Below, piece by piece: positions 14,716 through 59,242 of a DNA stretch of 64,000 nucleotides. Origin of the DNA: Diplonema papillatum (taxonomy: Eukaryota > Euglenozoa > Diplonemea > Diplonemida > Diplonemidae); the NCBI GenBank assembly GCA_030068145.1, contig JAPJBO010000150.1, forward strand, positions 62,001 through 126,000. The letters run 5' to 3'. The notes beneath the pieces were generated by a model. The model was not told the origin of the DNA. It saw only the letters and a program-made list of their open reading frames with translations, and ran no database searches. Made by a program: the position numbers and the translations under genes. Numbering within the stretch: the stretch's first letter is position 1; every line of letters begins with the position of its first letter.

Positions 14716-15125
14716 GAGCATGATCATTTGCAAATTTGCCACCTGAAACCACGTCCAGGATTTGGGCTCGGGGTAGTACGGTCAACGAAATCCCCGGGCC
14801 TCGAAACACGCCGGCAACAGCGACGGTGGAATGAAGAGGAAAGGAGGTGCTGAAAGCGGAAGCCTGGCTCGGCGGCAGCTGGCAGTTGCGAAAATGCCGA
14901 TCGAGCGGAGAGGAAAATAGGTCCGTGGCGGAGAACGAAGGGAGCATAACGCGGGGCGGGGGGCGGGGGATGGCTGGGGTTTTCGACCGCGAGTCCACTA
15001 ATAATAAGAGCTCCAGCCGAGCCAAATGGATCGGTGAGTATACGGTATTTTTCTCGGGATAGCAACCGGGGTGATAGCCTTGCGAAAAAGTCCGTTCCCG
15101 TCATTACTTCGATTTGAGAGTGACT

Positions 15126-15340
15126 AAAATACTCGAGGGACTGCCTTGTGCTCATTTCGAAGGAGGCTAGAGGGGGAGAAAACAATACAACTACAAAGTG
15201 GGTCTTTTTTGTTGAACGCTTACGCCCGCCACGAAACCCAGATTTACCTGTGTTTCGTGTGGGCTACAGCACATTTACCTCCTTTGATCTATCGCAACTG
15301 GCAGTCTCCTCAAGCATTTCCTACAAAGCAGGTGCTTATG
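15126..15340 (+). repeat. SINE-like repeat, copy without A-tail
   Basis: Nearly identical over about 215 bp to 44117-44341. It starts ATACTCGAGGGACTGCCTTG and ends ACAAAGCAGGTGCTTAT. The unit 3 copy ends in a poly(A) run, this one does not. The 3' part is related to the end of module A. Confidence 0.75.
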
Positions 15341-16894
15341 CAACATATACCCTCGAAGAATCTGTCTGCGCCCCCTCTGCCTCTTATGTCCGTGGACCGA
15401 AGACACCTTGCTGGTAAACTGCCGCCCCTTTTCCACCACTGCCAGCCAGGTACACAGGCTGGACGTAGTGACACTCCTTCTGGAGGGGACTGGTGTGCGT
15501 GAGTCTAATCGGGGCTTCTTGTGTCGCTGACGCAGGAGACGTTCAGTTCCTCGCTTTCGGAGGTAACCTATTGTGTGGAGGGAGAAGAAGCGGGGGGGAA
15601 AACTTAGTGTAGTGTAGGCAGAACACTGCCTCCGGAGAATCTTTAGGTTCATGTTTAGGCAGAATATTGCTAGCATCAAGTCGTATCGTAAGCTAGGAAT
15701 GAAACCATGAGGAGTTGGAGCCCCCCTGCTGCGCATGTTAGGTCGGGGCTTCTAAGAGCTTCAAGGTGCCTCGGGGAGCTGTCACTGATGAAAACAGTCT
15801 AAAACCGCGTACGGTGTAACCATTCGAGTTGGACAGAGGTTTGCATCCCTGGAAGGGACGAAAAAACAATGTGCAAGCCTACTGTTCGTCAAGGGGGATT
15901 TGTTGCCGGGTGGTACTTTTGAGGACCGCAGCAAACGACTGGCTGGCATGCAACCCACGCTTACCCGAACTACCTTGGAGCAGAAACACGTTTCTGAGCG
16001 GTTTGGTAGGCGCCCAGGCCTCCTAGGCATAGTGGTCAAACAATTCGCATTATCGCATATCATCGCATTTAGGATTTTGGCACCAATTATCGCATTTTCA
16101 TCCAGGATTGTTGGGGTTCACCGTACCTACAGTCCTTTTCTGACCTGTGTCGAACTGCACGCCGTAAAAGGGGGGAGCACTGACCCAGGGCAGCGTTGGC
16201 CGTACACGTTGCGATGCGCGGAAGATATACTTCAGACGCTGGAGCTCAATCTGGAGTAAAAAAGCGGGTGCTACACCGCTTTTTGGGTCTGGGATTTACA
16301 CACGTTGCGGTTGCCCTTAAAAAGTTGCGCCCCGTCGAATGCAGTGCAGAACGGGGTGATAGGCGTCGTTTGATCTCCAAAATCGTTGCTGCCGAAACGT
16401 TCCGAGTCGGCGCTTCGGGTGGAGTAGCTTCGGGCGCTGCTCAGACGCCTCTTTCCGTATCGATTGGCTGAGCTGGAGCTTCTGCCCACGGATCACCGCG
16501 CTGGCAGAGCTTCGACGGCTTCGACCGTTTGATACGAAAAAAGTGTCATGAGCGAATGGGGTGGGGATGGGGATGGGGGCGGGCAAAACATCGTTTAATG
16601 TTCTGAGGCATTTGAAAGAGGAAGTAGCGGTGCAGTCGAAGCAAGTGCGAGGGGGCGGGCGAGGAAGTCTTGGAATGTGGTGTGTGCTCTGGACACCGTG
16701 TCCCATCTGTCACCGTGTTTCGGTTGATTCGATCACGGACGCGCTGGCCACCATCAGCGCGGAACTTGAGTGCTGACAGACAAGGGTTGCCATGTGAGTT
16801 GATTCTGGGGTGGGGCCGACATCGTTTACTGTATAGGAGGGGGTTAGCATTGTTTTGGAGGAAGTTGCAAAAGAAACTAGCGATTGCATTGGGA

Positions 16895-17232
16895 AAACAG
16901 TGTTCTTACTAGTGAAAATTACTAGTGAAAATACCTTGCTAGTGATTTGTCATCACTAGTGAGTTGCTAGTCAAGACTAGTCATTCTGACTAGTGGCAAA
17001 ATCACTCGTAAGATTCTTACCAGTAAAATTACTAGGAGCTGGCCAGCGAATAATGCTTTTTGTGAAGTAATCCCTTTATAGGGGATCTTTTCATTTTCCA
17101 GGAAAGTGGACGCATTTACTAGTAAAAATAACTGGTGCAGTAGTAAGAATGACCAGTGGCACTAGTCATTATTACCAGTAAGATTCCATAGTAAGTAGAT
17201 CACTAGCGAATGGCTTTACTAGTGCACCGTGT
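16895..17232. mobile_element. ACTAGT-rich hairpin MITE, copy in unit 1
   Basis: Dense alternation of ACTAGT, ACTAGTGA and TTACTAGT words makes the segment largely self-complementary. The right end reads ACTAGTGCACCGTGTAC, matching the right terminal repeat of the copy at 40984-41283. The left terminal repeat is not preserved here. The centre contains TTTTTGTGAAG and CCTTTATAGGGG, shared with the other copies. Noncoding. Confidence 0.6.
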
Positions 17233-17921
17233 ACAAACGCGTCATGATTTTGAGGGTCAACTCCGTAGCAAAGCTAGCGAGGCAAGAGGAGTGGCGGGGG
17301 AGAAGGGTTGTAAGAACATGCGCGCGACCCATTGGTTACAAGAAATTACAAGCTGTTTCTCATGCTATGCTGATAACAGGATTACATAACATAGGTTTTC
17401 AACTGCATTCACGCTTTCCACATGTCATGCCAGTTGTGAACCTCATAACAAGCTGGTCGTGCGTGTGCTTAACCCGTCTTTTCACACGCGCTGTGTTGCC
17501 GTCCCTTCCCTCGCGGACAGGCATAGGCGGTAGTTCTCCAACGTAGCAAATGGGTGCCCGCAGACAGGGCAACGACGCGAGTCTCGTTCGTCAGTTGGCC
17601 GGGAATACCCTTGCTTCGAGAGCGCGGGCTAATTCCTCCGGCGATTGCGGCGTCCTTGGCTGATGACATCTGCCCCTCAGTAAGGACGCCTATCGCCCGC
17701 AGGTCGTCGCGGTTGCGCATTCGTGTTGCTTTGCTACCGTTTTGCGTAAGCGCCGTGATGAGATACTTTGGCTGCGGAACCCTACCCTGACGCGTTTCGT
17801 GGACAGGGCAGGTTCAGTTCGTTTAACATGAGGCCGAGCTAGAGCTGGACGAGCAGGTATGACGAGTTAGAGTATTTGGCGAAGTGAGTCAAGTATTTCT
17901 GTGTTCGTTCTTGGATTCCTG

Positions 17922-19861: not shown

Positions 19862-22800
19862 TTAGAACTCAAAGGTCTCAACGTGTAGTGGGAGGTGGAA
19901 GTGAGAAGACTCGGCTTCGGCTACTGCAGTCATGATCAACGGGGCAGGGCCGCAGATGGCAACGGCAGATCGCTCGTCGGCATACGTCAGAATGAGCTCC
20001 TTGAAGTCAGGACGGCCATGGTCAATGGTCAGGCGCGAGGACGAGATGTCGGCTTCGTTCAGCGACTGGTGCCCTGTGTACGAGATGGCGATGCGGAGGT
20101 TCGCAAACTTGGCCAACAGAGCTTCGATGTCCTCCAAAAGAAACAGAATGGTGCTAGGGTCCCGCACAGACCACGACAGCAACGCACTCTGCTCAGGCGC
20201 CATGTACGCTGCGATCCCAAGCATCGGCGTGATCCCGATGCCGCCGCATATCAAGACCAGCTTGTCGTGCTTTGTCATATCGAACTGCAGATTTCCGTAC
20301 GGGCCCTCCAACCTCGCGAACACCTTCTCCTTCCCATCGACTGCCAACTTGCTCAATCTGTCGGACCATGTACGCCTCCCCATGTTTTTCACGTAGAACA
20401 CAGCCTTTCCGGAGTCGTGATGCGAGACAACCGAAAACGGATGTGCCTCGGCAAACCCAACTTTCCCGATGCTGATGTACATATAACTGCCGGGGCCCCA
20501 CTTTCGGTCGCCAGTTTCGATTACCAGTTTTGTAACTGCGCCTGAGTAAGATACGGTAACGGGGTATTTGGACGCCTTCTGGTACGTACGAGCGGCGAAG
20601 TCCAAGCATAGAATTATCAAAGGCACGCCGTTGATGAGGTAAGGTCTCCAGCCCCCACTGATGTGCAAGATGGAGAACGTGACCGTCACAATGCTGAGCG
20701 CCACGTGAGACGCCACAAACACAGAGTAAAATTTCCTCCGGAAGAACGGTATCCCCAGCGCAACGAGGATGGTGTAGGCCACCCACGAGACGAAGCCGTA
20801 CAATGGATACACTGTAGTCTGCCCGTCGGTGGTACCGCCTGTGTGGAGTTCTTTGTCGAACAACACTTTGGCCGTCTGCGGCTCGTTTTCGAATTCGGCG
20901 TACATCACAATAGCATGAAGACTCACAAAGACCCATCCGATCAGTCCGATCCAACGGTGCCACACCAGCGTTCGCTCATGAGGCATGGCCATCAGCCAAA
21001 GACAAGGCGAGAGAATCTTTGCTCGCAAGAGGAAGGCAAGTGCAATACAAAGCTGTGCAGGGCCTGCGAAAACTACGCTGACTTGCGCTACTCGACCGCT
21101 GTAGTGGCCGGCATCGCCCACAGCGATAACGACGAGAGCAGCCGTGATGAAAACAATCGACAATACAGAGCCGAGGTAACTCTGCTGAAACACGTATCCG
21201 ATAGACGGACGTGCGAGAATCAGTGCACCGGACGCCAACCCGAGGAAGACGAGGAGGCACAACGATAATATGATATGCCACCATGTTTCTCCTCCAGAAG
21301 CGGTGATAGTCAGCGCGCCGCTAACGACATCATAAGCGATGGAACCAAACGAATCGTGCCAGTCCACAGGGGAAGAAGCACCGGAGGAAGGTCCCGTCGC
21401 ATAGATGAAGTTCACGTATTCATTCGAGATGACAGTGTCTCGCTCAGCATCTCCAGTGTCAAGCAGCCGCGAGAACGTGACAGACCACGTCGAACCTTGA
21501 GCGTTGTATTCCTCGATACGGATGTCTTGCGAGGCATCGGCAGGACACGCAGTCGTTTCCGTGCAAAACCAGTCACTGCAGTATACTGTGCCGGCATCTT
21601 CCCAGCACATCCAGGCATCTGCGGGTACCATCAGTCCGTCGTCGTTCAATCCAAGCGAACAATACCTCCCGGCAGCGCACTCAAACGTGAACCTCACGCT
21701 CGTGTACTCCTCTTCTCGCAAAGGGACACCCTCCCTCCTGTTCGTCGACTCTGAAAAGAACTCGATGCCCAATTTGAATGAGCTGTCCACTGTAATCAGT
21801 CCATGTTCCGCAGGAGTTCTGACGAGGTCCGGTGCAGCTGATTGAGACTGCGGTGGCTCCGGAAAGACGATGGTACCCTGTATCCAATCAGCGATTGCAA
21901 AACCTTCGCTGCTGTGCTTCCTGAAGCCGCCGTCTGTCACATCGCCGATGGCCCAAAGAATAGACTGCGTTTCATCTCGTACGAAGCTCAGATCATCACC
22001 ATCGCTTGTATCCCATGCCCGGGATAACTGCAACCACCAACTGCCGTTGGTCGTTCCTCCAGCCGAAAGCACCGTGACATCTTGCTTGTCATCCACAGTG
22101 GGCGCGGTTAAACTCCCGCCAACGTGTCCGTCCTCACACGATGCAACCACGTCTGCTGCATAATAGCAGATGATTGTGTCGGAGTACGTTTTAGTTTCCC
22201 CGATGCCAATTGCGCAGTAGTGTCCTTCGGAGCACGTCATGTTGATGACTAAGGAGCCGAGAGTCACCTTCCAAGTAACACTGAACTCGTCATTGAAGGC
22301 GAAGAACGGGTCCACCTGCGGTTCCGGAACGACGATGGTGCCGTGTCCCCAATCGACAACTGCAAAGCCTTCGCTGCTGTGCTTCCTGAAGCCGCCGTCT
22401 GTCACATCGCCGATGGCCCAAAGAATGGACTGCGTGCCATTCCGTACGAAGCTCAGGTCATCACCATCGCTTGTATCCCATGCCCGGGATAACTGCAGCC
22501 ACCAGCCGCCGTTGGTTGTTGCTCCTGCCGAAAGCACCGTGACATCTTGCTTACCATCTACAGTGGGTGCGGTTAAACTCCCGCCAACGTGTCCGTCCTC
22601 ACACGATGCAACCACGTCTGCCGCATAATAGCAGATGATTGTGTCGGAGTGCGTTTTCGTTTCCCCGATGCCAATTGCGCAGTAGTGTCCTTCGGAGCAC
22701 GTCATGTTGATGATCAACAAACTGGGAGTCACGTCCCAAGTAACGCTGAACTCGTCGTTGAAGGCGAAGTACGGGGCCCACTGAACAACGCGTCTGCCTT

Positions 22801-23245
22801 CGCTGCTGTGTTTTCGCAATGAGTCGTTGACGACAGTACCAAGAGCCCATATGATAGACTGCGGCTCGCTCGTCACAATTGCTCGGTCTTCGTCGTCGCC
22901 TGTGATCAGTGCCCTCGTGAACTGAATCCACCAAGCATCGCCCGTGCCTCCAGAGTCAACGACTGTGACGTCCTGTACCGTATCTTCGGTCGGTCGCGTT
23001 GGAACACTGCCGACGTGCTCGTCTTTGCACACGGCCACCTCGTTCAAGAAGTAGCATGTGATCGTATCCGAGCTAGCCTTCGAGGCCCCGAATCCAATCG
23101 CGCAGTATCGGTCAGCCGCGCAGGTCATGTTGAAGGCAACGACATCGCCGCCAAGCTCCCACGTTGTATCAAACTCAGGTGAGAACCTCAAACTACCGGC
23201 TTGCGCGGCCGCTAGTGTGCTGAGCACGCCCAACAGGCGGTACAT
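19862..23245 (-). CDS. Multi-DOMON ferric-reductase/NOX-type membrane oxidoreductase, copy 1
   Basis: 1,127 residues from ATG 23243-23245. Signal peptide MYRLLGVLSTLAAAQA. The ectodomain has DOMON-type repeats at about 17-157, 158-307 and 308-466 (each with YCAIGxG..K..SDT and an IxWAxG end) and a divergent fourth at 467-650. A membrane core (about 655-900) carries two H-x13-H pairs, in WHRWIGL...LHAIV and ASHVALS...ILHISGG, as in ferric reductases and NADPH oxidases (two haems). Next are the FAD motif HPFSVVS (~936), the pyridine-nucleotide motif GGIGITPMLG (~1003) and the terminal CGPAPL. By family, it passes electrons from cytosolic NAD(P)H across the plasma membrane to an external acceptor, probably metal. 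DOMON domains bind haem or sugars. No intron. The C-terminus and D4 carry the most copy-specific residues (ECAAGRYCS, YNAQGS). Confidence 0.92.
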   Translation of the reverse strand: MYRLLGVLSTLAAAQAGSLRFSPEFDTTWELGGDVVAFNMTCAADRYCAIGFGASKASSDTITCYFLNEVAVCKDEHVGSVPTRPTEDTVQDVTVVDSGGTGDAWWIQFTRALITGDDEDRAIVTSEPQSIIWALGTVVNDSLRKHSSEGRRVVQWAPYFAFNDEFSVTWDVTPSLLIINMTCSEGHYCAIGIGETKTHSDTIICYYAADVVASCEDGHVGGSLTAPTVDGKQDVTVLSAGATTNGGWWLQLSRAWDTSDGDDLSFVRNGTQSILWAIGDVTDGGFRKHSSEGFAVVDWGHGTIVVPEPQVDPFFAFNDEFSVTWKVTLGSLVINMTCSEGHYCAIGIGETKTYSDTIICYYAADVVASCEDGHVGGSLTAPTVDDKQDVTVLSAGGTTNGSWWLQLSRAWDTSDGDDLSFVRDETQSILWAIGDVTDGGFRKHSSEGFAIADWIQGTIVFPEPPQSQSAAPDLVRTPAEHGLITVDSSFKLGIEFFSESTNRREGVPLREEEYTSVRFTFECAAGRYCSLGLNDDGLMVPADAWMCWEDAGTVYCSDWFCTETTACPADASQDIRIEEYNAQGSTWSVTFSRLLDTGDAERDTVISNEYVNFIYATGPSSGASSPVDWHDSFGSIAYDVVSGALTITASGGETWWHIILSLCLLVFLGLASGALILARPSIGYVFQQSYLGSVLSIVFITAALVVIAVGDAGHYSGRVAQVSVVFAGPAQLCIALAFLLRAKILSPCLWLMAMPHERTLVWHRWIGLIGWVFVSLHAIVMYAEFENEPQTAKVLFDKELHTGGTTDGQTTVYPLYGFVSWVAYTILVALGIPFFRRKFYSVFVASHVALSIVTVTFSILHISGGWRPYLINGVPLIILCLDFAARTYQKASKYPVTVSYSGAVTKLVIETGDRKWGPGSYMYISIGKVGFAEAHPFSVVSHHDSGKAVFYVKNMGRRTWSDRLSKLAVDGKEKVFARLEGPYGNLQFDMTKHDKLVLICGGIGITPMLGIAAYMAPEQSALLSWSVRDPSTILFLLEDIEALLAKFANLRIAISYTGHQSLNEADISSSRLTIDHGRPDFKELILTYADERSAVAICGPAPLIMTAVAEAESSHFHLPLHVETFEF

Positions 23246-23659: not shown

Positions 23660-24072
23660 GGCATAAAGGAGAAGGAAAGCGAGATCATGGACGTCAAGGC
23701 GCGCGTAGGCGAGGAAGAAAGCGAGATCATGGACGTCAGGGCGCACGTAGGCGAGGAGGAAAGCGAGATCATGGAGTCCAGACGCGCGTAGGCGAGGAGA
23801 AAAAAAGCGGTGAGCATGGACGTCAGGGCGCACGTAGGAGGAAAGCGCGATCATGGAAGTCAAGGTGCACGTAGGCGAGGAGGAAAGCGAGATCATGGAC
23901 GTCAGGGCGCACGTCGGATGAAAGCGAGATCATGGAAGTCAAGGTGCACGTAGGCGAGGAGGAAAGCGAGATCATGGAAGTCAAGGCGCACGTAGGCGAG
24001 GAGGAAAGCGAGATCATGGACGTCCAGGTGCACGTAGGCGAGGAGGAAAGCGCGATCATGGACGTCAAGGGC
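23660..24072. repeat. 42-bp minisatellite upstream of reductase copy 1
   Basis: About ten imperfect units of roughly 42 bp containing GCGAGATCATGGACGTC and CACGTAGGCGAGGAGGAAA. It lies about 415 bp upstream of the start codon. Frames run open on both strands without domains, so I treat it as noncoding. Confidence 0.9.
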
Positions 24073-24470
24073 GCAACCGAGCCCGGCAAGAAGCGTTAAG
24101 ACAGTAGCGACAGTCTCGCCACTGCAGGACCGCCAGGTAGAGCGGAAACGGAGTAGCAGTTGGACTGCACCACGCGCGAAATGTGCACCAGGATCGAAAC
24201 GGCGTGCAACGCCTGCCTCGCAGATGGAAACGCTTCCCGTGTAAAGTAGACGCTGGCACGTTGATCCTGGCTCAACGTTCTCTTGGCGCAGGACACTATG
24301 AGGAAGAAACAACCTCCGCGTTCGCATCGAAGCCAGCATCTGAACGGCGTACGGAGGGCCCATCGAAGCGACGACTCCACAGAAGACACACGGTCATCGC
24401 CCAAGTGCCGTGAAGAAGCGCAGCAGTCGATGAAGTCGGGCGGGTAGTCGAAGGAGAAGCGAAGCACCAA

Positions 24471-24592: not shown

Positions 24593-26004
24593 AAACTGTA
24601 AAGGTGCGCTTCCTGTAGACTGTAGATGTATTCCTCATGCCCGAGTCCGTGCACCTCGTGGACGTGTGACATCCATCTATTCGCATGTGACACCCGTACC
24701 GACGTGTCGAAAGGGCCGGTCGCTTTTCATGGGGCCTCGAAACAGTCGGCAACTGCGTTTGGCAACCGGGAAACAGAGAAGAATTTCGGGAGCCTGACTC
24801 GGCGGCAGCTGGCAGTTGCGAAGAATGCCGATCGAGCGGAGAGGAAGACAGGTCCGTGGCGGAGAACGAAGGGAGCATAACGCGGGGCGGGGGGCGGGGG
24901 ATGGACGGAGGATTCCGACTGCGAGTCCACCAATGCGAAGGTAGAGCTCTAGCCAGGCTAAAAATGGGTGGCCCCCGCAACGGGGCTAACAGAGCCTTCT
25001 GTAGGTTGGGGGACTGAAAAGAGAAAGCCCCAAATGAGTTGCCTTTGCTCACCTGCCTCGTTGGTCAGACCGGAGACACACATTGCCAGTACTCTACCTG
25101 CACCCAGATGCACTGACGTAGCGACTCTTTCTGGCGGTACTGGTCTGCGGGTGCCAAATTGGGGCTTCTTTTTTGCTGATGCAGGGGAAACTCTTAGTTC
25201 AATGTTTAGGCAGAGCACGGCCTCTCATGCGTGGTTGATGTTAGCATCAAGTCTTCTTCTGGGGGAGGAACTCATTGTCTAATGTTGGTAAGGCAGAGCA
25301 CTGCTAGCATCAAGTCACCTCTGCGACAAGTCACAGAGGATAAGAGACTCAGTAAGTGTGTATGTTCGGTTGGGGCTTCTTAGAGCTACAAGACACCTCT
25401 GGGGACAGCTGCTGTTCAGAAAACCGCGCGTTTTAGTATGGACACGGAAACGTCTCCTTCGCTGCGCACTTCCAGGTGCACCCTGCAGCAACCGCTTCCT
25501 CTAACTAAGGAAACGCCGTTTTCTCAAAAAGTTGAAAGCATGGCAACGGAACCAGAGACCCGGAAACATTCCGTTTCCTTGCCACCTTAGCTCTGGGGAG
25601 GGGTCGGTGCGGGTGTATTGGCTTCGAATGCTGCTCTGCAGCTGCAATTCATGAAAACGCGTATCGCCACGGAAACGGAAACGGGAACCGTTTGCGTTGA
25701 CTATCCTAACCCAGGCTTAGGGCAGTGCGGGTGGAGTAGCTGCGGGCGCTGCTCAGACGCCTCTTCCGGTATCGATTGGCTGAGCTGGAGCTTCTGCCCA
25801 CGGATCACCGCGCTGGCAGAGCTTCGACTGCTCCCGCCGTTTGACAAGAAAAAGGTGTCGTGAGCGAATGGGGTAGGGATGGGGGTGGGTACACATCGTT
25901 TAAATGGTTTGAGTGCGGTGGGCATTGCAGAGAGGAAGTAGCGAAGCAAGAGCGGGGGAAAATGTTTCTTGGGTTGGGGGAGGGGGGGGTTAGCAAGAAC
26001 GTGC

Positions 26005-38847: not shown

Positions 38848-38908
38848 AGTCGATATTCCCTTTGGAAAGACTAGTGTGGCTGAAATCGAAGCGGGTGGGG
38901 CGGTACAC

Positions 38909-38952
38909 GTGTTTTTGTGTTTCCGACGATCCCGAATGGGTGTACAGATTGG
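38909..38952. repeat. 44-bp motif shared with the rDNA flank
   Basis: GTTTCCGACGATCCC, ATGGG and TACAGATTGG occur in the same order here and at 62576-62620, with two or three substitutions. It lies just upstream of the 116-residue frame. Confidence 0.7.
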
Positions 38953-42200: not shown

Positions 42201-42239
42201 CTGATGCTAAGTCGCAGTTGAGAACCGTATAACAAGTGG

Positions 42240-45059: not shown

Positions 45060-48000
45060 TTAGAACTCGAAGGTCTCAACGTGTAGTGGGAGGTGGAAGG
45101 AAGAAGACTCGGCTTCGGCTACTGCCGTCATGATCAACGGGGCAGGGCCGCAGATGGCAACGGCAGATCGCTCGTCGGCATACGTCAGAATGAGCTCCTT
45201 GAAGTCAGGACGGCCATGGTCAATGGTCAGGCGCGAGGACGAGATGTCGGCTTCGTTCAGCGACTGGTGCCCTGTGTACGAGATGGCGATGCGGAGGTTC
45301 GCAAACTTGGCCAACAGAGCTTCGATGTCCTCCAAAAGAAACAGAATGGTGCTAGGGTCCCGCACAGACCACGACAGCAACGCACTCTGCTCAGGCGCCA
45401 TGTACGCTGCGATCCCAAGCATCGGCGTGATCCCGATGCCGCCGCATATCAAGACCAGCTTGTCGTGCTTTGTCATATCGAACTGCATATTTCCGTACGG
45501 GCCCTCCAACCTCGCGAACAACTTCTCTACCCCATCGACTGACAACCTGCTCAATCTGTCAGTCCATGTATGCCTCCCCATGTTTTTCACGTAGAACACA
45601 GCCTTTCCGGAGTCGTGATGCGAGACAACCGAAAACGGATGTGCCTCGGCAAACCCAACTTTCCCGATGCTGATGTACATATAACTGCCGGGGCCCCACT
45701 TTCGGTCGCCAGTTTCGATTACCAGTTTTGTAACTGCGCCTGAGTAAGATACGGTAACGGGGTATTTGGACGCCTTCTGGTACGTACGAGCGGCGAAGTC
45801 CAAGCATAGAATTATCAAAGGCACGCCGTTGATGAGGTAAGGCCTCCAGCCCCCACTGATGTGCAAGATGGAAAACGTGACCGTCACAATGCTGAGCGCC
45901 ACGTGAGAAGCAACAAACACAGAGTAAAACTTCCTCCGGAAGAACGGGATCCCCAGCGCAACGAGAATGGTGTAGGCCACCCACGAGACGAAGCCGTACA
46001 ATGGATACACTGTAGTCTGCCCGTCGGTGGTACCGCCTGTGTGGAGTTCTTTGTCGAACAACACTTTGGCCGTCTGCGGCTCGTTTTCGAATTCGGCGTA
46101 CATCACAATAGCATGAAGACTCACAAAGACCCACCCGATCAGTCCGATCCAACGGTGCCACACCAGCGTTCGCTCATGAGGGATGGCCATCAGCCAAAGA
46201 CAAGGCGAGAGAACCTTTGCTCGCAGGAGGAAAGCAAGTGCAATACAAAGCTGTGCAGGGCCTGCGAAAACTACGCTGACTTGCGCTACTCGACCGCTGT
46301 AGTGGCCGGCATCGCCTACGGCAATAACGACGAGAGCAGCCGTGATGAAAACAATCGACAATACAGAGCCGAGGTAACTCTGCTGGAACACGTATCCAAT
46401 AGACGGGCGTGCGAGAATCAGTGCACCGGACGCCAACCCGAGGAAGACGAGGAGGCACAGCGATAATATGATATGCCACCATGTTTCTCCTCCAGAAGCG
46501 GTGATTGTCAGCGAGCCGCTAACGACATCATAAGCGATGGAACCAAACGAATCGTGCCAGTCCACAGGAGAAGAAGCACCGGAGGAAGGTCCCGTCGCGT
46601 AGATGAAGTTCACGAATTCATTCGAGATGACAGTGTCTCGCTCAGCATCTCCAGTGTCAAGCAGCCGCGAGAACGTGACAGACCACGTCGAATCTTGAAC
46701 CTTGTATTCCTCGATACGGATGTCTTGCGAGGCATCGGCAGGACATGCAGTCGTTTGAGTACAAAACCAGTCACTGCAGTATACTGTGCCGGCATCTTCC
46801 CAGCACATCCAGGCATCTGCGGGTACCATCAGTCCGTCGTCGTTCAATCCAAGCGAGCAATACGTCCCCGCAGTGCACTCAAACGTGAACCTCACGCTCG
46901 TGTACTCCTCTTCTCGCAAAGGGACACCCTCCCTCCTGTTCGTCGACTCTGAAAAGAACTCGATGCCCAATTTGAATGAGCTGTCCACTGTAATCAGTCC
47001 ATGTTCCGCAGGAGTTCTGACGAGGTCCGGTGCAGCTGATTGAGACTGCGGTGGCTCCGGAAAAACGATGGTACCCTGTATCCAATCAGCGATTGCAAAA
47101 CCTTCGCTGCTGTGCTTCCTGAAGCGGCCGTCTGCCACATCGCCGATGGCCCAAAGAATGGTCTGCGTTTCATCCCGTACGAAGCTCAGATCATCACCAT
47201 CGCTTGTATCCCATGCCCGGGATAACTGCAGCCACCAGCCGCCGTTGGTCGTTCCTCCTGCCGAAAGCACCGTGACATCTTGCTTGTCATCCACAGTAGG
47301 CGCGGTTAGCTTCCCGCCAACGTGTCCGTCCTCACACGATGCAACCACGTCTGCCGCATAATAGCAAACAATGGTGTCGGAGTACGTTTTCGTTTTCCCG
47401 ATACCAATTGCACAGTAGTGTCCTTCGGAGCACGTCATGTTGATGATCAACGAACCGAGCGTCACTTCCCAAGTAACACTGAACTCGTCGTTGAAGGCGA
47501 AGAACGGGTCCGACTGCGGTGGCTCCGGCCAGACAATGGCACCCTGTCCCCAATTGGCGACAGCAAAGCCTTCGCTGCTGTGCTTCCTGAAGCGGCCGTC
47601 TGTCACATCACCAAGAGCCCAAAGGATAGACTGCGTGCCATCCCGGACGAAGCTCAGATCATCACCGTCGCTTGTATCCCATGCCCGGGATAACTGCAGC
47701 CACCAGCCGCCGTTGGTCGTTCCTCCGGCCGAAAGCACCGTGACATCTTGCCTGTCATCCACAGTGGGCGCGGTTAACTTCTCGCCAACGTGTCCGTCCT
47801 CACACGATGCAACCACGTCTGCCGCATAATAGCAGATGATTGTGTCGGAGTGCGTTTTCGTTTCCCCGATACCAATTGCACAGTAGTGTCCTTCGGAGCA
47901 CGTCATGTTGATGATCAACGAAGGGGCAGTCACCTCCCAAGTAACACTGAACTCGTCGTTGAAGGCAAAGAACGGGCCGGACTGCGGTGGCTCCGGCCAG

Positions 48001-48914
48001 ACAATGGCACCCTGTCCCCAATTAGCGACAGCAAAGCCTTCGCTGATGTGCTTCCTGAAGCGGCCGTCTGTCACATCCCCGATGGCCCAAAGAATAGACT
48101 GCGTGCCATCCCGTACGAAGCTCAGGTCATCATCATCGCTTGTGTCCCATGCCCGGGATAACTGCAGCCACCAGCCGCCGTTGGTCGTTCCTCCGGCCGA
48201 AAGCACCGTGACATCTTGCCTGTCATCCACAGTGGGCGCGGTTAACTTCTCGCCAACGTGTCCGTCCTCACACGATGCAACCACGTCTGCCGCATAATAG
48301 CAGATGAATGTGTCGGAGTGCGTTTTCGTTTCCCCGATACCGATTGCGCAGTAGTGTCCTTCGGAGCACGTCATGTTGATGATCAACGAAGGAGCAGTCA
48401 CCTCCCAAGTAATACTGAACTCGTCGTTGAAGGCGAAGGACGGGGCCCACTGCACAACGTGTCGGCCTTCGCTGCTGTGTTTTCGCAGTGAGCCGCTGGC
48501 GACAGTACCAAGAGCCCATATGATAGACTGCGGCGCGTTCGTCACAATGGCACGGTCTTCGTCGTCGCCTGTGATCAGTGCCCTCGTGAACTGAATCCAC
48601 CAAACATCGCCCGTGCCTCCAGAGTCAAGGACTGTGACGCCCTGTACCGTATCTTCGGTCGGTCGCGTTGGAACACTGCCGACGTGCTCGTCTTTGCACA
48701 CGGCCACCTCGTTCACGAAGTAGCATGTGATCGTATCCGAGTTAGCCTTCGAGGCCCCGAATCCAATCGCGCAGTATCGGTCAGCCGCGCAGGTCATGTT
48801 GAAGGCAACGACATCGCCGCCAAGCTCCCACGTTATATCAAACTCAGGTGAGAACCTCAAACTACCGGCTCGCGCGGCCGCTAGTGTGCTGAGTACGCCC
48901 AACAGGCGGTACAT
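45060..48914 (-). CDS. Multi-DOMON ferric-reductase/NOX-type membrane oxidoreductase, copy 3 (extra DOMON)
   Basis: 1,284 residues from ATG 48912-48914. It has four canonical DOMON units, one more than the other copies, plus the divergent last one: boundaries near residues 158, 314, 470 and 623, then helices from ~812, HPFSVVS ~1093 and GGIGITP ~1160. The extra domain comes from an in-frame 468-bp (156-codon) tandem duplication: the blocks at 47511-47978 and 47979-48446 are almost identical and both read GAIVWPEPPQS. The first membrane-proximal haem pair WHRWIGL...LHAIV and the second ASHVALS...LHISGG are intact. It shares KVGFAEAHPF with copy 1 but RHTWTDRLSRLSVDG with copy 4. Predicted role as for the family: transmembrane electron export. 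Confidence 0.92.
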   Translation of the reverse strand: MYRLLGVLSTLAAARAGSLRFSPEFDITWELGGDVVAFNMTCAADRYCAIGFGASKANSDTITCYFVNEVAVCKDEHVGSVPTRPTEDTVQGVTVLDSGGTGDVWWIQFTRALITGDDEDRAIVTNAPQSIIWALGTVASGSLRKHSSEGRHVVQWAPSFAFNDEFSITWEVTAPSLIINMTCSEGHYCAIGIGETKTHSDTFICYYAADVVASCEDGHVGEKLTAPTVDDRQDVTVLSAGGTTNGGWWLQLSRAWDTSDDDDLSFVRDGTQSILWAIGDVTDGRFRKHISEGFAVANWGQGAIVWPEPPQSGPFFAFNDEFSVTWEVTAPSLIINMTCSEGHYCAIGIGETKTHSDTIICYYAADVVASCEDGHVGEKLTAPTVDDRQDVTVLSAGGTTNGGWWLQLSRAWDTSDGDDLSFVRDGTQSILWALGDVTDGRFRKHSSEGFAVANWGQGAIVWPEPPQSDPFFAFNDEFSVTWEVTLGSLIINMTCSEGHYCAIGIGKTKTYSDTIVCYYAADVVASCEDGHVGGKLTAPTVDDKQDVTVLSAGGTTNGGWWLQLSRAWDTSDGDDLSFVRDETQTILWAIGDVADGRFRKHSSEGFAIADWIQGTIVFPEPPQSQSAAPDLVRTPAEHGLITVDSSFKLGIEFFSESTNRREGVPLREEEYTSVRFTFECTAGTYCSLGLNDDGLMVPADAWMCWEDAGTVYCSDWFCTQTTACPADASQDIRIEEYKVQDSTWSVTFSRLLDTGDAERDTVISNEFVNFIYATGPSSGASSPVDWHDSFGSIAYDVVSGSLTITASGGETWWHIILSLCLLVFLGLASGALILARPSIGYVFQQSYLGSVLSIVFITAALVVIAVGDAGHYSGRVAQVSVVFAGPAQLCIALAFLLRAKVLSPCLWLMAIPHERTLVWHRWIGLIGWVFVSLHAIVMYAEFENEPQTAKVLFDKELHTGGTTDGQTTVYPLYGFVSWVAYTILVALGIPFFRRKFYSVFVASHVALSIVTVTFSILHISGGWRPYLINGVPLIILCLDFAARTYQKASKYPVTVSYSGAVTKLVIETGDRKWGPGSYMYISIGKVGFAEAHPFSVVSHHDSGKAVFYVKNMGRHTWTDRLSRLSVDGVEKLFARLEGPYGNMQFDMTKHDKLVLICGGIGITPMLGIAAYMAPEQSALLSWSVRDPSTILFLLEDIEALLAKFANLRIAISYTGHQSLNEADISSSRLTIDHGRPDFKELILTYADERSAVAICGPAPLIMTAVAEAESSSFHLPLHVETFEF

Positions 48915-49444: not shown

Positions 49445-50450
49445 CTAACGACGAATAATTCCGGAAGCATCATTTTGGGCCGCTTTCGTTCGCAAGTCGC
49501 CGCGAAGCTGCGCAAGACGCACCCTGCTTTCGTCGAAGTCGAGACTCATCGCATCCTTGGGCATGACGCCGCATAGAGCCATGCATGGCTTCATCTCGGG
49601 CTGCCGAGCGAGCACACCCGGATACGCGCCACGCACGTCGCTCCACTTCACGCAGTCCCACCACATGTGGTGTTCGTCTTCCGGGACGCCCGCGTCGCAG
49701 AATCTGCAGGTTGCTTGCTCCCGTAACGTCGCAGTCAGGTTGCTTGCTCCCGTAACGTCGCAGAATCTGCAGGTTGCTTGCTCCCGTAACGTCGCCGACA
49801 GGTTGCTTGCTCCCGTAACGTCGCAGAATCTGCAGGTTGCTTGCTCCCGTAACGTCGCAGACAGGTTGCTTGCTCCCGTAATGTCGCAGACAGGTTGCTT
49901 GCTCCCGTAACGTCGCAGAATCTGCAGGTTGCTTGCTCCCGTAACGTCGCAGACAGGTTGCTTGCTCCCGTAACGTCGCAGAATCTGCAGGTTGCCTGCT
50001 CCCGTCGCAGACAGGTTGCTTGCTCCCGTAACGTCGCAGACAGGTCTCCTGTAACGTCGCAGACAGGTCTTCTGTATCGTCGCAGAACCGGCTCACGACG
50101 TCGACTGCCTTCTGCACAGCGGGCTCGCTGTTGCGTGCAGAGTGGCGTCGTCGGCATACGACTCCGACGCCACCGGCACCGCCCTCAGCATCAATGACAA
50201 CAGCGCGTTGATCAGGATGACCGAGATCGGGCGGCCCTGCAGGATGCCGTTGGTGACCTCAAAGTAAGCCCCACACCCAGCGGCAGCTTGAACCGTCGTT
50301 TCAGCCCGCGGTACATCGTTTGCAACGGCTTGTGGATGCGGGCGTCCAGCCCTATCTCCACCAAATTAGTAAGGGATTGCATTAGTACTAAATCGTCCCT
50401 CGGGACTACTGACAGGCCTTTAACTACCCTGAGCAGCGCACTGTGCACGT
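49445..50450 (-). pseudogene. LINE reverse-transcriptase pseudogene split by a minisatellite
   Basis: Reading leftward: LVEIGLDARIHKPLQTMYRG in one frame, then, one frame over, AYFEVTNGILQGRPISVILI and SYADDATLHAT (catalytic YADD, 50148-50159). A further frame change gives AVQKAVDVVSRFCDDT. These match RT palm segments of non-LTR retrotransposons. After the minisatellite (49700-50060) the frame reads TCRFCDAGVPEDEHHMWWDC, a C-x2-C-x8-H-x5-C zinc knuckle typical of a LINE C-terminus, ending at 49445. At least two frameshifts and loss of the thumb region make it dead. Confidence 0.75.
49700..50060. repeat. 29/34-bp minisatellite upstream of reductase copy 3
   Basis: About a dozen units of GTTGCTTGCTCCCGTAACGT followed by CGCAGACAG or CGCAGAATCTGCAG. 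It begins about 785 bp upstream of the start codon. Units encode RFCDVTGASNL or LRREQATC on the minus strand, matching the LINE sequences RFCDDTEDL and TCRFCDAG on its two sides. Confidence 0.95.
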
Positions 50451-51614: not shown

Positions 51615-53514
51615 CAAACACGCTGCCAGCGTTCTCTTTCGTGTTTACAATGCATTGTTACTACGAAAAAGACCCAAAAAAGTTGTCTTTGCACACCTGC
51701 CTCGTTGGTCAGAGGACCGGAGACACCTTGCTAGCAAACCGCCGTCCCTTCTCCACCAGCCAGATATACCGGCTTGATGCAATGACTTTCTGGAGGGGAC
51801 TGGTTTGGGTGTGCCAAAAACGGGTTTTATTTTCGCTGAGGCGGGGAACACGTTTTGGTGCCACACTACCGGAAGCAACCTGTCGATGAAAGGCTGGTGC
51901 CCCCGCTACGCACGCTCGATCGGGGCTTCTGAGAGCTACGAGATGCCTTAGGGGGCAGCTGCCACTCACAAGAACGCGTAATATGGTGTGATCCGGTGGC
52001 GTTACTTGGGCGGACAAGGGGTGTACTCGGTCACGGGAAGTACTAAATGCAAAAAAAGTATCGCCAGAAATCGCCATTTTCCCCTATTTTGGGGTAGCAT
52101 GGGGGTGTACTTGGGAAAATACTTGGGAAGTTCACGGGAATTACTAAATGCGGATATATCGCCAGAAATCGTCATTTTCCCCTTTTTGGGGTAGCAAGGG
52201 GGTGTACTTGGGAAGTACTTCGGAAGTTCTTGGTAAATTCATGGGAAGGTAAGTTTTCTACGGATCACACCACAATACAACGGAAACGGAATTGTCTCCG
52301 TAGTTACGCACTTCCAGCTGCACCTGCCGCAGCCGAATCCATGACAGTATGATAACGAAAACAGGGAACGTTTCCGTTGACTCGCTGTCTTAGCCCTGGC
52401 CTAAGGTGGTGCGCAGAGTAGCTTCAGGCGCTCAGACGCCCCTTTCGTATCGATTGGCTGAGCTGGAGCTTCTGCCCACGGATCACCGCGCTGGCAGAGC
52501 TTCGACTGCTCCCGCTGTTTGATACGAAAAAGGTGTCGTGAGCAAATGGGGTGGGGAGGGTGGCGAGCATCGTTTAAATGTTAAGTTAAACGGGCATGCC
52601 TTCGGGGCATTTGAAAGAGGAAGTAGCGATGCTGTCGGAGCAGGAGGAGGCGGGCTGACGTCTTGGAATGGTATGCGTTCAACACACAATGTCCTTTTTG
52701 CAATCGTGTTTCGGTCTATTAAGTCACCGACGCCTCAGGCCGGCCATCATCAGCGCGGAACCTGAGTGCCGGTGGGTAGCGATGTTAGTCTGGTTCTGGG
52801 GTGGGGCCGACATTGCTAAATGTCGAGGGAGGGGAGAGCATTGTTTTGGAGGTATTTGGAAAAGGAACTAGCGATGCTGTGGAGTAAGAACGGGGGTTTG
52901 TTAGACCACGCACGACGCACTTGCTACAAAGTTTTTCATATGTCATGTTCATAACATCAACACAACGAGTACTACCATCGGGTTTCACTGTATTCACGTG
53001 TGATTCCATGTTTTCAGCTGTTTTGCGAAGTCACAGTTGTGAACCTCATAACAAGTGGAACGTATGTGTCTAGCATCCGTCTTTTCACATGCGCTGTGTT
53101 GCGGTCCTTTTTCCTCACGGACAGGCATAGGCGGTAATCCAGTGGAGTACATGAGTGTCCACCGACAGGGCAACGATGTGAGTCTGGCTTGGCCAGGACT
53201 ACCCATGCTTCGAGAGCACGGCAAATTCCTGCAGCGATTGCATCGTCCTTGGCTGATGACATCTGCCCCTCAGCAAGGACGGTATCGGTTGCAGGTCGTC
53301 GCGTTAGCGGATTCGCGTTGTTGGTTGGTGTTACCGTTTGACGTGAGCGCCGTGATGAGATACTTTTGGCAGCGGAACCCCGCAGCTCTCGTTTCGTGGA
53401 CAGGGGCAGGGTTGGTTCGTTCAACTTGACGTCCGAAGCTGGAGCTAGACGAGCAGGTGTCACGAGTTAGTTTGCAGTGAGTTGAATGTTGCTGTGTTGT
53501 TTCTTTAAATAATT

Positions 53515-55796: not shown

Positions 55797-58700
55797 CTAG
55801 AACTGGAAGGTCTCAACGTGTAGTGGGAGGTGGAAATGAGAAGATTTGGCTTCAGCTACTGCAGTCATGATCAACGGGGCAGGGCCGCAGATGGCAACAG
55901 CAGAATGCCTGTCTGCATACGTCAGAATGAGCTCCTTGAAGTCAGGACGGCCATGGTCAATGGTCAGGCGCGAGGACGAGATGTCGGCTTCGTTCAGCGA
56001 CTGGTGCCCTGTGTACGAGATGGCGATGCGGAGGTTCGTAAACTTGGCCAACAGAGCTTCGATGTCCTCCAAAAGAAACAGAATGGTGCTAGGGTCCCGC
56101 ACAGACCACGACAGCAACGCACTCTGCGCAGGGGCCATGTACGCTGCGATCCCAAGCATCGGCGTGATCCCGATGCCGCCGCATATCAAGACCAGCTTGT
56201 CGTGCTTTGTCATATCGAACTGCAGATTTCCGTACGGGCCCTCCAACCTCGCGAACAACTTCTCTGCCCCATCGACTGACAACCTGCTCAATCTGTCAGT
56301 CCATGTATGCCTCCCCATGTTTTTGACGTAAAACACAGCCTTCCCAGAGTCGTGATGCGAGACAACAGAAAACGGATGTGCCTCGGAAAACCCAACTTCA
56401 CCGATGCTGATGTACATATAACTGCCGGGGCCCCACCTTCGGCCGCAGGTTTCCATCACCAGTTTCGTGACTGCACCGGAGTAAGACACGGTAACGGGGT
56501 ACGTAAACGCCTTCTGGTACGTACGAACGGCGAAGTCCAAGCATAGAATTGTCAAAGGCACGCTGTTGATGAGGTAAGGTCTCCAGCCCCCACTGATGTG
56601 CATGATGGAAAACGTGACCGTCACAATGCTGAGCGCCACGTGAGACACCACAAACACAGAGTAAAACTTCCTTCGGAAGATCGGGGCTCCGAGCGCAACG
56701 AGAATGGTGTAGGCCACCCACGAGAAGAACCCGTACAATGGATACACTGTAGTCTGCCCGTCGGTGGTACCGCCTGTGTGGAGTTCCTTGTCGAACAACA
56801 CTTTGGCCGTCTGCGGCTCGCCTTCGAATTCGGCGTACATCACAATAGCATGAAGACTCACAAAGACCCACCCGAAGAGTCCGATCCAACGGTGCCACAC
56901 CAGCGTTCGCTCATGAGGGATGGCCATCAGCCAAAGACAAGGCGAGAGAACCTTTGCTCGCAAGAGGAAAGCAAGTGCAATACAATGCTGTGCAGGGCCT
57001 GCGAAAACTACGCTGACTTGCGCTACTCGACCGCTGTAGTGACGGGCATCGCCTACAGCAATAACGACAAAGGCAGCCGTGATGAAAACGATCGACAATG
57101 CAGAGCCGAGGTGACCCTGCTGGAACACGTATCCGATAGACGGGCGTGCGAGAATCAGTGCACCGGACGCCAACCCGAGGAAGACGAGGAGGCACAACGA
57201 TAATACGATATGCCACCTTGTTTCTCCTCCAGAAGCGGTGATTGTCAGCGAGCCGCTAACGACATCATAAGCGATGGAACCAAACGAATCGTGCCAGTCC
57301 ACAGGGGAAGAAGCACCGGAGGAAGGTCCCGTCGCATAGATGAAGTTCACGAATTCTTTGAAGATGACTGAGTCTCGTTCAGCATCTCCAGTGTCAAGCA
57401 GCCGCGAGAACGTGACAGACCACATCGAATCTTGAACCTTGTATTCCTCGATACGGATGTCTTGCGAGGCATCGGCAGGACATGCAGTCGTTTGAGTACA
57501 AAACCAGTCACTGCAGTATACTGTGCCGGCATCTTCCCAGCACATCCAGGCATCTGCGGGTACCATCAGTCCGTCGTCGTTCAATCCAAGCGAGCAATAC
57601 GTCCCCGCAGTGCACTCAAACGTGAACCTCACGCTCGTGTACTCCTCTTCTCGCAAAGGGACACCCTCCCTCCTGTTCGTCGACTCTGAAAAGAACTCGA
57701 TGCCCAATTTGAATGAGCTGTCCACTGTAATCAGTCCATGTTCCGCAGGAGTTCTGACGAGGTCCGGTGCAGCTGATTGAGACTGCGGTGGCTCCGGAAA
57801 GACGATGGTACCCTGTATCCAATCAGCGACTGCAAAGCCTTCGCTGCTGTGCTTCCTGAAGCGGCCGTCTGTCACATCGCCGATGGCCCAAAGGATAGAC
57901 TGCGTGTCATCCCGTACGAAGCTCAGGTCATCACCATCGCTTGTATCCCATGCCCGGGATAACTGCATCCACCAACCGCCGTTGGTCGTTCCTCCAGCCG
58001 AAAGCACCGTGACATCTTGCTTGTCATCCACAGTGGGCGCGGTTAGCTTCCCGCCAACGTGTCCGTCCTCACACGATGCAACCACGTCTGCATAATAGCA
58101 AACAATGGTGTCAGAGTGTGTTTTCGTTTCTCCGATACCAATTGCACAGTAGTGTCCTTCGGAGCACGTCATGTTGATGATCAGCGAACTGAGAGTCACT
58201 TCCCAAGTAACACTGAACTCGTCGTTGAAGGCGAAGAACGGGTCCAACTGCGGTGGCTCCGGCCAGACAATGGTACCCTGTCCCCAATCGGCGACAGCAA
58301 AGCCTTCGCTGCTGTGCTTCCTGAAGCGGCCGTCTGTCACATCGCCGATGGCCCAAAGGATAGACTGCGTGCCATCCCGTACGAAGCTCAGGTCATCACC
58401 ATCGCTTGTATCCCACGGTCGGGATAACTGCAGCCACCAGCCGCCGTTGACAATCCCTCCGGCCGAAAGCACCGTGACATCTTGCTTGGCATCCACAGTG
58501 GGCGCGGTTAACTTCGCGCCAACGTGTCCGTCCTCACACGATGCAACCACGTCTGCCGCATAGTAGCAGATGATTGTGTCGGAGTGCGTTTTCGTTTCCC
58601 CGATACCGATTGCGCAGTAGTGTCCTTCGGAACACGTCATGTTGATGATCAACAAACTGGGAGTCACGTCCCAAGTAACACTGAACTCGTCGTTGAAGGC

Positions 58701-59180
58701 GAAGTACGGGGCCCACTGCACAACGTGTCTGCCTTCGCTGCTGTGTTTTCGCAATGAGTCGTTGACGACAGTACCAAGAGCCCATATGATGGACTGCGGC
58801 GCGTTCGTCACAATTGCACGGTCTTCGTCGTCGCCTGTGATCAGTGCCCTCGTGAACTGAATCCACCAAACATCGCCCGTGCCTTCAGAGTCAACGACTG
58901 TGACGTCTTGTACCGTATCTTCGGTCGGTCGCGTTGAGACACTGCCGACGTGCTCGTCTTTGCACACGGCCACCTCGTTCAAGAAGTAGCATGTGATCGT
59001 ATCCGAGTTAGCCTTCGAGGCCCCGAATCCAATCGCGCAGTATCCGTCAGCCGCGCATGTCATGTTGAAAGCAACGACATCGCCGCCAAGCTCCCACGTA
59101 ATGTCAAACTCAGGTGAGAACCTCAAATTACCGGCTCGCGCGGCCGCCAGTGTGCTGAGCACGCCCAACAGGCGGTACAT
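55797..59180 (-). CDS. Multi-DOMON ferric-reductase/NOX-type membrane oxidoreductase, copy 4
   Basis: 1,127 residues from ATG 59178-59180. The in-frame ATG at 59453 would add 91 residues coded partly by the minisatellite, so I do not use it. Domain layout is that of copy 1. Differences: one alanine codon is missing in the third DOMON (CYYADVVAS for CYYAADVVAS, near 58090); the FAD region is IGEVGFSEAHPF as in copy 2; the C-terminus reads DRHSAVAICG and ends VETFQF where the others end VETFEF. A cysteine replaces aspartate in METCGRRWGPG (others METGDRKWGPG or IETGDRKWGPG). Haem histidine pairs, HPFSVVS, GGIGITP and CGPAPL are all intact. Probably functional. Confidence 0.92.
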   Translation of the reverse strand: MYRLLGVLSTLAAARAGNLRFSPEFDITWELGGDVVAFNMTCAADGYCAIGFGASKANSDTITCYFLNEVAVCKDEHVGSVSTRPTEDTVQDVTVVDSEGTGDVWWIQFTRALITGDDEDRAIVTNAPQSIIWALGTVVNDSLRKHSSEGRHVVQWAPYFAFNDEFSVTWDVTPSLLIINMTCSEGHYCAIGIGETKTHSDTIICYYAADVVASCEDGHVGAKLTAPTVDAKQDVTVLSAGGIVNGGWWLQLSRPWDTSDGDDLSFVRDGTQSILWAIGDVTDGRFRKHSSEGFAVADWGQGTIVWPEPPQLDPFFAFNDEFSVTWEVTLSSLIINMTCSEGHYCAIGIGETKTHSDTIVCYYADVVASCEDGHVGGKLTAPTVDDKQDVTVLSAGGTTNGGWWMQLSRAWDTSDGDDLSFVRDDTQSILWAIGDVTDGRFRKHSSEGFAVADWIQGTIVFPEPPQSQSAAPDLVRTPAEHGLITVDSSFKLGIEFFSESTNRREGVPLREEEYTSVRFTFECTAGTYCSLGLNDDGLMVPADAWMCWEDAGTVYCSDWFCTQTTACPADASQDIRIEEYKVQDSMWSVTFSRLLDTGDAERDSVIFKEFVNFIYATGPSSGASSPVDWHDSFGSIAYDVVSGSLTITASGGETRWHIVLSLCLLVFLGLASGALILARPSIGYVFQQGHLGSALSIVFITAAFVVIAVGDARHYSGRVAQVSVVFAGPAQHCIALAFLLRAKVLSPCLWLMAIPHERTLVWHRWIGLFGWVFVSLHAIVMYAEFEGEPQTAKVLFDKELHTGGTTDGQTTVYPLYGFFSWVAYTILVALGAPIFRRKFYSVFVVSHVALSIVTVTFSIMHISGGWRPYLINSVPLTILCLDFAVRTYQKAFTYPVTVSYSGAVTKLVMETCGRRWGPGSYMYISIGEVGFSEAHPFSVVSHHDSGKAVFYVKNMGRHTWTDRLSRLSVDGAEKLFARLEGPYGNLQFDMTKHDKLVLICGGIGITPMLGIAAYMAPAQSALLSWSVRDPSTILFLLEDIEALLAKFTNLRIAISYTGHQSLNEADISSSRLTIDHGRPDFKELILTYADRHSAVAICGPAPLIMTAVAEAKSSHFHLPLHVETFQF

Positions 59181-59220
59181 GTAGTGCGGGAGATTTTTGT
59201 CTTCTTCTTGAGTTTTTTTG

Positions 59221-59242
59221 GGAAAGCAACTGTGTGGATGTG
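59221..59242 (-). promoter_or_regulatory. Conserved upstream box of reductase copy 4
   Basis: AAGCAACTGTGTGGATGTG, identical to the copy 1 box, 41 bp from the ATG. Upstream homology to the other copies ends just beyond it. Confidence 0.5.

What the first reader, a model, noticed from the sequence alone, without database searches (positions are those of the whole stretch)
14790..59242. Four-unit tandem amplification of a transmembrane reductase gene
Direct reading shows four near-identical 3.4-3.9 kb genes in the same orientation at spacings of 12.8, 12.4 and 10.7 kb. Each sits at the right end of a unit with the same ordered noncoding modules (D, C, B, A). All four copies keep intact frames and catalytic motifs despite heavy transposon traffic in the spacers, which suggests selection for copy number, for example for iron or copper uptake.
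Basis: partly seen in the sequence, partly recalled or inferred. Interest (0 to 1): 0.8.

Follow-up and report, generated by a model that had tools for sequence, protein, structure and literature searches.

The report
Tandem multi-DOMON ferric reductase genes
A eukaryotic genome carries four near-identical intact copies, side by side, of a membrane enzyme that probably pushes electrons out of the cell; they belong to a larger gene family whose outer, probably heme-carrying domains have been multiplied up to eighteen times in one protein.

Summary
Four intact, intronless minus-strand genes (1127, 1128, 1284, 1127 aa) lie in one orientation, 12.8, 12.4 and 10.7 kb apart, each at the right end of a unit (8.5 to 11.5 kb) that repeats the same ordered noncoding islands. 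Distinct SNPs and insertions argue against an assembly expansion.

Each protein has 4 or 5 N-terminal DOMON domains, a ferric-reductase membrane core and FAD/NAD domains. DOMON-ferric reductases with one or two DOMONs are in print (PMC3591440). This genome has 25 ferric-reductase-domain places, at least 19 DOMON-bearing; the largest single-exon frames carry 16 and 18 DOMONs, most with a Met/His pair like that proposed to hold heme b in such domains. In the four window genes all 13 distal DOMONs have Lys instead of Met and keep His; only the membrane-proximal DOMON keeps both.

Gene bodies are under purifying selection and one pair shares a conversion tract (G1-G3, 22 silent sites). Selection for copy number is not shown. 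Islands C (a stable 119-nt hairpin) and D occur at five places in the genome, four here and one in a sister unit; their function is open.

The parts
19862..23245 (-). G1, DOMON-ferric reductase gene, 1127 aa, 4 DOMONs
32693..36079 (-). G2, DOMON-ferric reductase gene, 1128 aa, 4 DOMONs
45060..48914 (-). G3, DOMON-ferric reductase gene, 1284 aa, 5 DOMONs
55797..59180 (-). G4, DOMON-ferric reductase gene, 1127 aa, 4 DOMONs
47044..48453 (-). Three 468-bp DOMON repeats of G3 (the other three genes have two)
14795..15031 (.). Island D, unit 1 (also about 24676-25025, 39991-40259, 50737-51085)
   Evidence: five places in the genome
16438..16556 (.). Hairpin of island C, unit 1
   Evidence: five places in the genome for island C
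25750..25868 (.). Hairpin of island C, unit 2
40728..40846 (.). Hairpin of island C, unit 3
52432..52547 (.). Hairpin of island C, unit 4
16693..16885 (.). Island B, unit 1 (also about 26926-27142, 41299-41680, 52653-53016)
17431..17912 (.). Island A, unit 1 (also about 27327-27812, 42205-42644, 53024-53473)
28551..31265 (-). hAT-like transposase frame inside unit 2
23669..24075 (.). Minisatellite, 42 bp, 5' of G1
36265..36850 (.). Minisatellite, 45 bp x 13, 5' of G2
49693..50086 (.). Minisatellite, 63 bp, 5' of G3
59370..61088 (.). Minisatellite, 23 bp, 5' of G4

Best explanation
The window holds a tandem array of four functional genes for an NAD(P)H-driven membrane reductase of the ferric-reductase type with an outer DOMON array. 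Electrons go from NAD(P)H to FAD, across the membrane by hemes held by four histidines of the membrane core, then to a heme b in the membrane-proximal DOMON, and from there, directly or along further DOMONs, to outside acceptors such as ferric or cupric ions. In most other members of the family the distal DOMONs also keep Met/His and could form a multi-heme relay; in the four window genes the distal DOMONs have Lys in place of Met. The array arose by tandem duplication of a unit of about 8.5 kb; its genes are kept alike by purifying selection and, at least for G1 and G3, by gene conversion, and the rest has drifted except in short noncoding islands. Shown: array, domain make-up, motif and ligand residues, selection, one conversion tract. 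Inferred: heme occupancy, direction of electrons, substrate, localisation.
For: DOMON, Ferric_reduct, FAD_binding_8 and NAD_binding_6 above curated cut-offs in all four. In 18 family members aligned, three membrane histidines are invariant and the fourth is kept in 17; HP, GP.G, G.G.T and CGP of the FAD/NAD part are kept in 18 of 18. The proximal DOMON has Met and His in 4 of 4 window genes; the Met column aligns with residue 74, Met, of cellobiose dehydrogenase 4qi3 in a weak match, E 0.16; 5 of 22 sampled DOMONs also match the CDH cytochrome profile. PMC10784544 (passages) proposes a DOMON Met90/His174 heme pair in the ferric and cupric reductase HYP1. dN/dS 0.23-0.34. Conversion: 22 consecutive silent polymorphic codons shared by G1 and G3, reached in 0 of 2000 permutations.
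Against: No structure, expression or activity data; structure prediction was off. Sequence searches of solved structures gave one significant DOMON match, dopamine beta-hydroxylase, E 2.5e-4, which is not a heme protein as far as recalled, and otherwise weak matches. Distal DOMONs of the window genes lack the Met ligand. The other five gene pairs gave no significant conversion tract (p 0.16-0.99). One of six copies of the clade is broken. Superoxide-making activity was not tested.
Confidence: 0.62

Rival explanations
1. The protein is a NOX-like enzyme that makes superoxide outside the cell, and the DOMONs serve for sugar or wall binding rather than electron transfer.
For: The FRD superfamily contains NOX, and DOMONs are said to bind heme or sugars (PMC3591440 and PMC10784544, passages); distal window DOMONs lack Met; solved chains matching the flavin part include NOX2 and DUOX1, besides ferric reductases and flavohemoglobin.
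Against: Met/His kept in 77 of 89 DOMONs of the other members and in the proximal DOMON of all four window genes; no EF-hand among the Pfam matches.
Confidence: 0.17
2. It is an extracellular electron donor for copper enzymes that oxidise polysaccharides, as cellobiose dehydrogenase is recalled to serve LPMOs, not a part of iron uptake.
For: CDH-cyt profile matches in C150b (E 1.2e-18) and in 5 of 22 sampled DOMONs.
Against: No LPMO was sought in the genome; the membrane core is of the ferric-reductase type.
Confidence: 0.12
3. On copy number only: the tandem copies are passive products of recombination without a benefit of copy number. This does not exclude the main explanation.
For: Conversion tract; six of six copies of the clade have a minisatellite within 1.5 kb of the 5' end against 11% of random stretches; a neighbouring papain-type protease gene is also in tandem; one of six copies is broken.
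Against: Amino-acid changes are held down, and five of six copies are open.
Confidence: 0.5
4. The array is an assembly artefact.
For: Two pairs of other ferric-reductase places have identical scores on different contigs, so haplotype duplicates may exist in this assembly.
Against: The copies lie on one contig with dS 0.106-0.143, different insertions and different junction sequences.
Confidence: 0.03

Closest known systems
DOMON-bearing eFRE subfamily of the ferric reductase domain superfamily (PMC3591440, passages: Naegleria gruberi, Albugo laibachii, Phytophthora infestans)
   Same: N-terminal DOMON(s) fused to a ferric reductase core with FAD and NAD domains
   Different: One or two DOMONs there; 4 or 5 in the window genes and 1 to 18 in the family here; Met replaced by Lys in the window's distal DOMONs
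CYBDOM proteins such as HYP1 (PMC10784544, passages)
   Same: Outer DOMON with a proposed Met/His heme pair behind a membrane heme core; ferric and cupric reduction
   Different: Cytochrome b561 core fed by ascorbate there; FRE/NOX-type core with FAD and NAD domains here
Cytochrome domain of cellobiose dehydrogenase (PF16010)
   Same: Some family DOMONs match the profile
   Different: One cytochrome domain on a soluble sugar oxidase there (recalled)
NADPH oxidases (NOX, DUOX)
   Same: Membrane heme core plus FAD/NAD domains
   Different: No EF-hand or peroxidase-like domain among the Pfam matches; DOMON array outside

Membership tests
FRD superfamily, eukaryotic FRE/NOX core | Ferric_reduct, FAD-binding and NAD-binding domains in this order | tested here: met
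   above curated cut-offs in 4 of 4
FRD superfamily, eukaryotic FRE/NOX core | four membrane histidines | tested here: met
   all four present in G1-G4; in 18 members three are invariant and the fourth is in 17
DOMON-eFRE subfamily (PMC3591440) | N-terminal DOMON fused to the core | tested here: met
DOMON-eFRE subfamily (PMC3591440) | one or two DOMONs, as described there | tested here: not met
   4, 4, 5, 4 in the window; 1 to 18 in the family. This is the reported range, not a stated requirement of the subfamily
DOMON-eFRE subfamily (PMC3591440) | common ancestry with the named members in a tree | not testable with these tools
   those sequences are not held
CYBDOM | cytochrome b561 domain | tested here: not met
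   no such Pfam match up to E 0.01
heme-b DOMON cytochrome | Met and His pair, membrane-proximal DOMON of the window genes | tested here: met
   4 of 4
heme-b DOMON cytochrome | Met and His pair, distal DOMONs of the window genes | tested here: not met
   13 of 13 have Lys and His
heme-b DOMON cytochrome | bound heme | not testable with these tools
   needs protein
calcium-controlled NOX | EF-hands | tested here: not met
   none among Pfam matches up to E 0.01
NOX (superoxide-making) | signature residues named in PMC3591440 | not tested
   not mapped onto these proteins

The most novel reading that the evidence does not exclude
A eukaryotic outward electron conduit built of up to 18 DOMON b-type cytochrome domains on one NAD(P)H-driven reductase, whose length changes quickly by tandem repeat gain (12 units of 492 bp in one gene, neighbours 98.6-99.6% alike), with a natural Met-to-Lys axial ligand change in the distal hemes of the amplified window genes that would lower their potential.
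Probability: 0.25. Interest if true: 0.85.

Novelty: new variant of a known kind. Interest (0 to 1): 0.58.

Why it matters
Long multi-heme relays outside cells are known from bacteria (recalled); if the DOMON arrays here carry heme, a eukaryote has built a comparable relay from another fold, with repeat number as an easily changed length. The Lys-for-Met change in 13 of 13 distal domains of the amplified genes makes ligand tuning directly testable with single recombinant domains. The array is also a compact case of conversion and constraint in genes against drift in spacers, with short conserved noncoding islands of unknown role.

Tried and rejected
Islands as coding exons: tested in ungapped blocks of at least 45 columns with five sequences; the best frame in C, B or A had p 0.14, while the coding control reached p 0.01. 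Island D had no such block and was not tested. Islands as known RNAs: no Rfam match at gathering score in the units; the weaker search (E up to 1) matched none of the islands. tRNAs: none found by a bacterial-code ARAGORN run.

Island C as a structured RNA by covariation: of 43 pairs in five sequences none has both sides changed, six have a one-sided change, seven are broken or gapped in one sequence; on a longer four-sequence alignment one of 60 pairs had both sides changed. The hairpin therefore rests on stability (z -4.2 to -6.0), not on covariation; and among 1065 windows of 120 bases of the whole window, 2 to 8 fold at least as well by energy. Islands A (four copies) and D (three copies) mostly do not fold better than shuffles (z -2.1 to 0.8). 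Hairpin as source of a small RNA against the reductase: no match of 15 bases or more within G1-G4; two 19-base, 89% matches in C171 members at E 4, and short matches elsewhere at E 0.3 or more.

Viral origin: no relative of P0002 in viral contigs, one distant reductase, 25%, for the wider profile. Prokaryote relatives: four distant loci, 22-33% identity, not followed. Organism: no light-harvesting family match (1 of 14 controls rang), no elicitin match (no control rang, so no evidence of absence).

Full report
1. What is there. The window is G000:C150:62001-126000 of a 271-Mb genome in 2910 contigs with eukaryote-type LSU rRNA fragments. Four homologous blocks of about 4.2 to 4.7 kb at 91-93% identity in the long alignments each hold one long minus-strand frame: G1 1127 aa, G2 1128, G3 1284, G4 1127 from the shared MYRLLGV start. 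G3 is longer by one 468-bp DOMON repeat.

2. Units. To the left of each gene (downstream of it, since the genes run leftwards) lie the same islands in the same order, D, C, B and A. In a four-way alignment conservation is high in D, C and A, weaker in B, and near background between them. Unit lengths are 8515, 11458, 8991 and 8514. Unit 2 carries a hAT-like transposase frame (28551-31265) at a place where units 2 and 3 are otherwise colinear. Identity in 150-base steps is mostly 90-100% in the gene body (lowest 85%), mostly 77-95% in the 3' flank (lowest 72%) and 41-54% in the next step outwards.

3. The protein. All four show DOMON, Ferric_reduct, FAD_binding_8 and NAD_binding_6 above cut-off. 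A signal-like N-terminus is seen by eye only. Membrane histidines and FAD/NAD motifs are intact in all four.

4. The family. A protein search of the genome finds near copies on C504 and more distant ones on C150, C171, C172, C39, C71 and C7 (35 of 50 candidates scored, so a lower bound). A search with the Ferric_reduct model gives 25 places (27 of 27 candidates scored); by coordinates 19 of them are DOMON-bearing places; the other six were not examined for DOMONs. The counts run from 1 (C71a) to 16 (3102-aa frame of C7) and 18 (3369-aa frame of C172). Pfam finds DOMON plus Ferric_reduct in 6 of 6 further members submitted (one was given without its N-terminal part) and DOMON in 22 of 22 sampled domains. 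In the 3102-aa C7 frame twelve 492-bp units are 98.6-99.6% alike between neighbours; the thirteenth compared is 51%. Not all arrays are so young: four C172 units are 31-68% alike between neighbours by ungapped comparison.

5. Ligands. The column that holds Met in 89 of 112 DOMONs holds Lys in 17; the His column holds His in 100 of 112. Met and His together are in 83 of 112, Lys and His in 16. Leaving out the window genes and the two C504 copies (23 domains), 77 of 89 have Met and His. In the window 13 of 13 distal DOMONs have Lys and His and 4 of 4 proximal ones Met and His. The Met column aligns with residue 74, a Met, of cellobiose dehydrogenase 4qi3 in a weak profile match (E 0.16); better matches are the dopamine beta-hydroxylase DOMON (E 2.5e-4) and nitrite oxidoreductase subunit C (E 0.043). 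That Met74 is the heme ligand in CDH is recalled. The alignment does not reach the His. Two single DOMONs gave no DOMON match among solved structures. PMC10784544 (passages) proposes DOMON Met90 and His174 as the heme pair of HYP1 and compares His174 with His176 of 4QI3. Lys is kept in DOMON 1 and DOMON 2 of the same gene, which are only 49% alike; this fits a kept role, but also common descent after one loss. Met-to-Lys ligand switching is known from cytochrome c (PMC12188557, passages); that Lys lowers the potential is recalled.

6. Selection and conversion. Pairwise dS is 0.106-0.143 and dN/dS 0.23-0.34; by region dN/dS is 0.21-0.39. G1 and G3 share 22 consecutive silent polymorphic codons, alignment codons 1024-1254, reached in 0 of 2000 permutations; the other five pairs are not significant. 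dS is uneven along the gene, 0.04 in the proximal DOMON and 0.19 in the distal repeats; this fits exchange, but misaligned repeats could raise the second figure. One sister copy on C504 is open (999 aa), the other is broken by a frame change and a stop. In a tree of 18 reductase tails the six form one supported clade.

7. Islands. Searches with C and D find five places each in the genome, four here and one on C504, all candidates scored. A has the same five at or near full length plus 29 partial matches, mostly of about 100 bases. B was not searched in the genome. C folds into a long hairpin, -54 to -59 kcal/mol, z -4.2 to -6.0 in the four units, 0 of 200 shuffles as good; the minus strand of two copies gives z -5.2 and -4.1, so the transcribed strand, if any, is unknown. 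By energy alone it is among the 8 best of 1065 windows, not the best. Covariation is lacking and no coding signal was found in C, B and A. They are conserved noncoding parts of the amplified unit; a small noncoding gene is possible but unproved.

8. Junctions. All six copies of the clade have a minisatellite of period 20 or more within 1.5 kb of the 5' end, with five different periods (42, 45, 63, 23, 56; G4 and the broken C504 copy share the 23-bp one), against 1363 of 12415 random 1.5-kb stretches outside the genes (11%; contigs weighted equally) and 0 of 8 other members, six of which had less than 1.5 kb of flank. This was noticed after the fact and the two 23-bp cases are not independent.

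9. Mechanism. Best reading: NAD(P)H to FAD to the membrane hemes to the proximal DOMON heme to outside ferric or cupric ions. Shown by sequence: domains and ligand residues. Inferred: heme, direction, substrate. The DOMON-reductase fusion is known with one or two DOMONs (PMC3591440, passages). Searches of the paper library listed no paper whose title or shown abstract describes longer DOMON arrays on this core; most listed papers were not opened, and subscription journals and protein databases were not searched, so priority is not claimed.

10. Verdict. The tandem array is real; as a gene amplification it is of an ordinary kind. What lifts it is the family: DOMON arrays of up to 18 domains with likely heme ligands kept, and a ligand change in the amplified branch.

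Noticed in passing
window 61428-62136, 10918-11093, 18497-18618: Fragments of eukaryotic LSU rRNA (the third below the gathering score). The first lies beside the 23-bp minisatellite; a similar minisatellite with the sequence next to it, but without the LSU part, recurs at C504:117979-118714 beyond the broken C504 copy.
   Followed up: partly
window 9781-10827; C150:56658-57809 and 59947-61137: Papain-type cysteine protease gene in three tandem copies, about 97% alike, left of the reductase array.
   Followed up: partly
window 15126-15343 and 44115-44331: Dispersed repeat of about 218 bp found at dozens of genomic places (one search scored 40 of 3880 candidates), inside units 1 and 3.
   Followed up: partly
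window 43106-43399 and 53515-53808: A repeat of about 294 bp, 96% alike, in opposite orientation in units 3 and 4, also at C150:58928-59230.
   Followed up: no
window 1039-2988: Open frame of 649 aa with a DDE_Tnp_1_7 (piggyBac-type) transposase domain.
   Followed up: partly
window 37549-39537: Inverted-repeat element with CGTTATATAA repeats and GATTTTTGCC-like runs, between units 2 and 3.
   Followed up: no
window 23669-24075, 36265-36850, 49693-50086, 59370-61088; C504:102461-102653 and 113022-113493: Minisatellites 5' of every copy of the clade, mostly unrelated to each other; possibly recombination-prone promoters.
   Followed up: partly
G000 C359/C1812 and C225/C2021: Ferric-reductase places with identical scores on two contigs each, perhaps haplotype duplicates in the assembly.
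   Followed up: no
L042-L043 (C171:17981-27257): Three stretches with long minus-strand frames made of short tandem repeats (period 43 in two of them).
   Followed up: no
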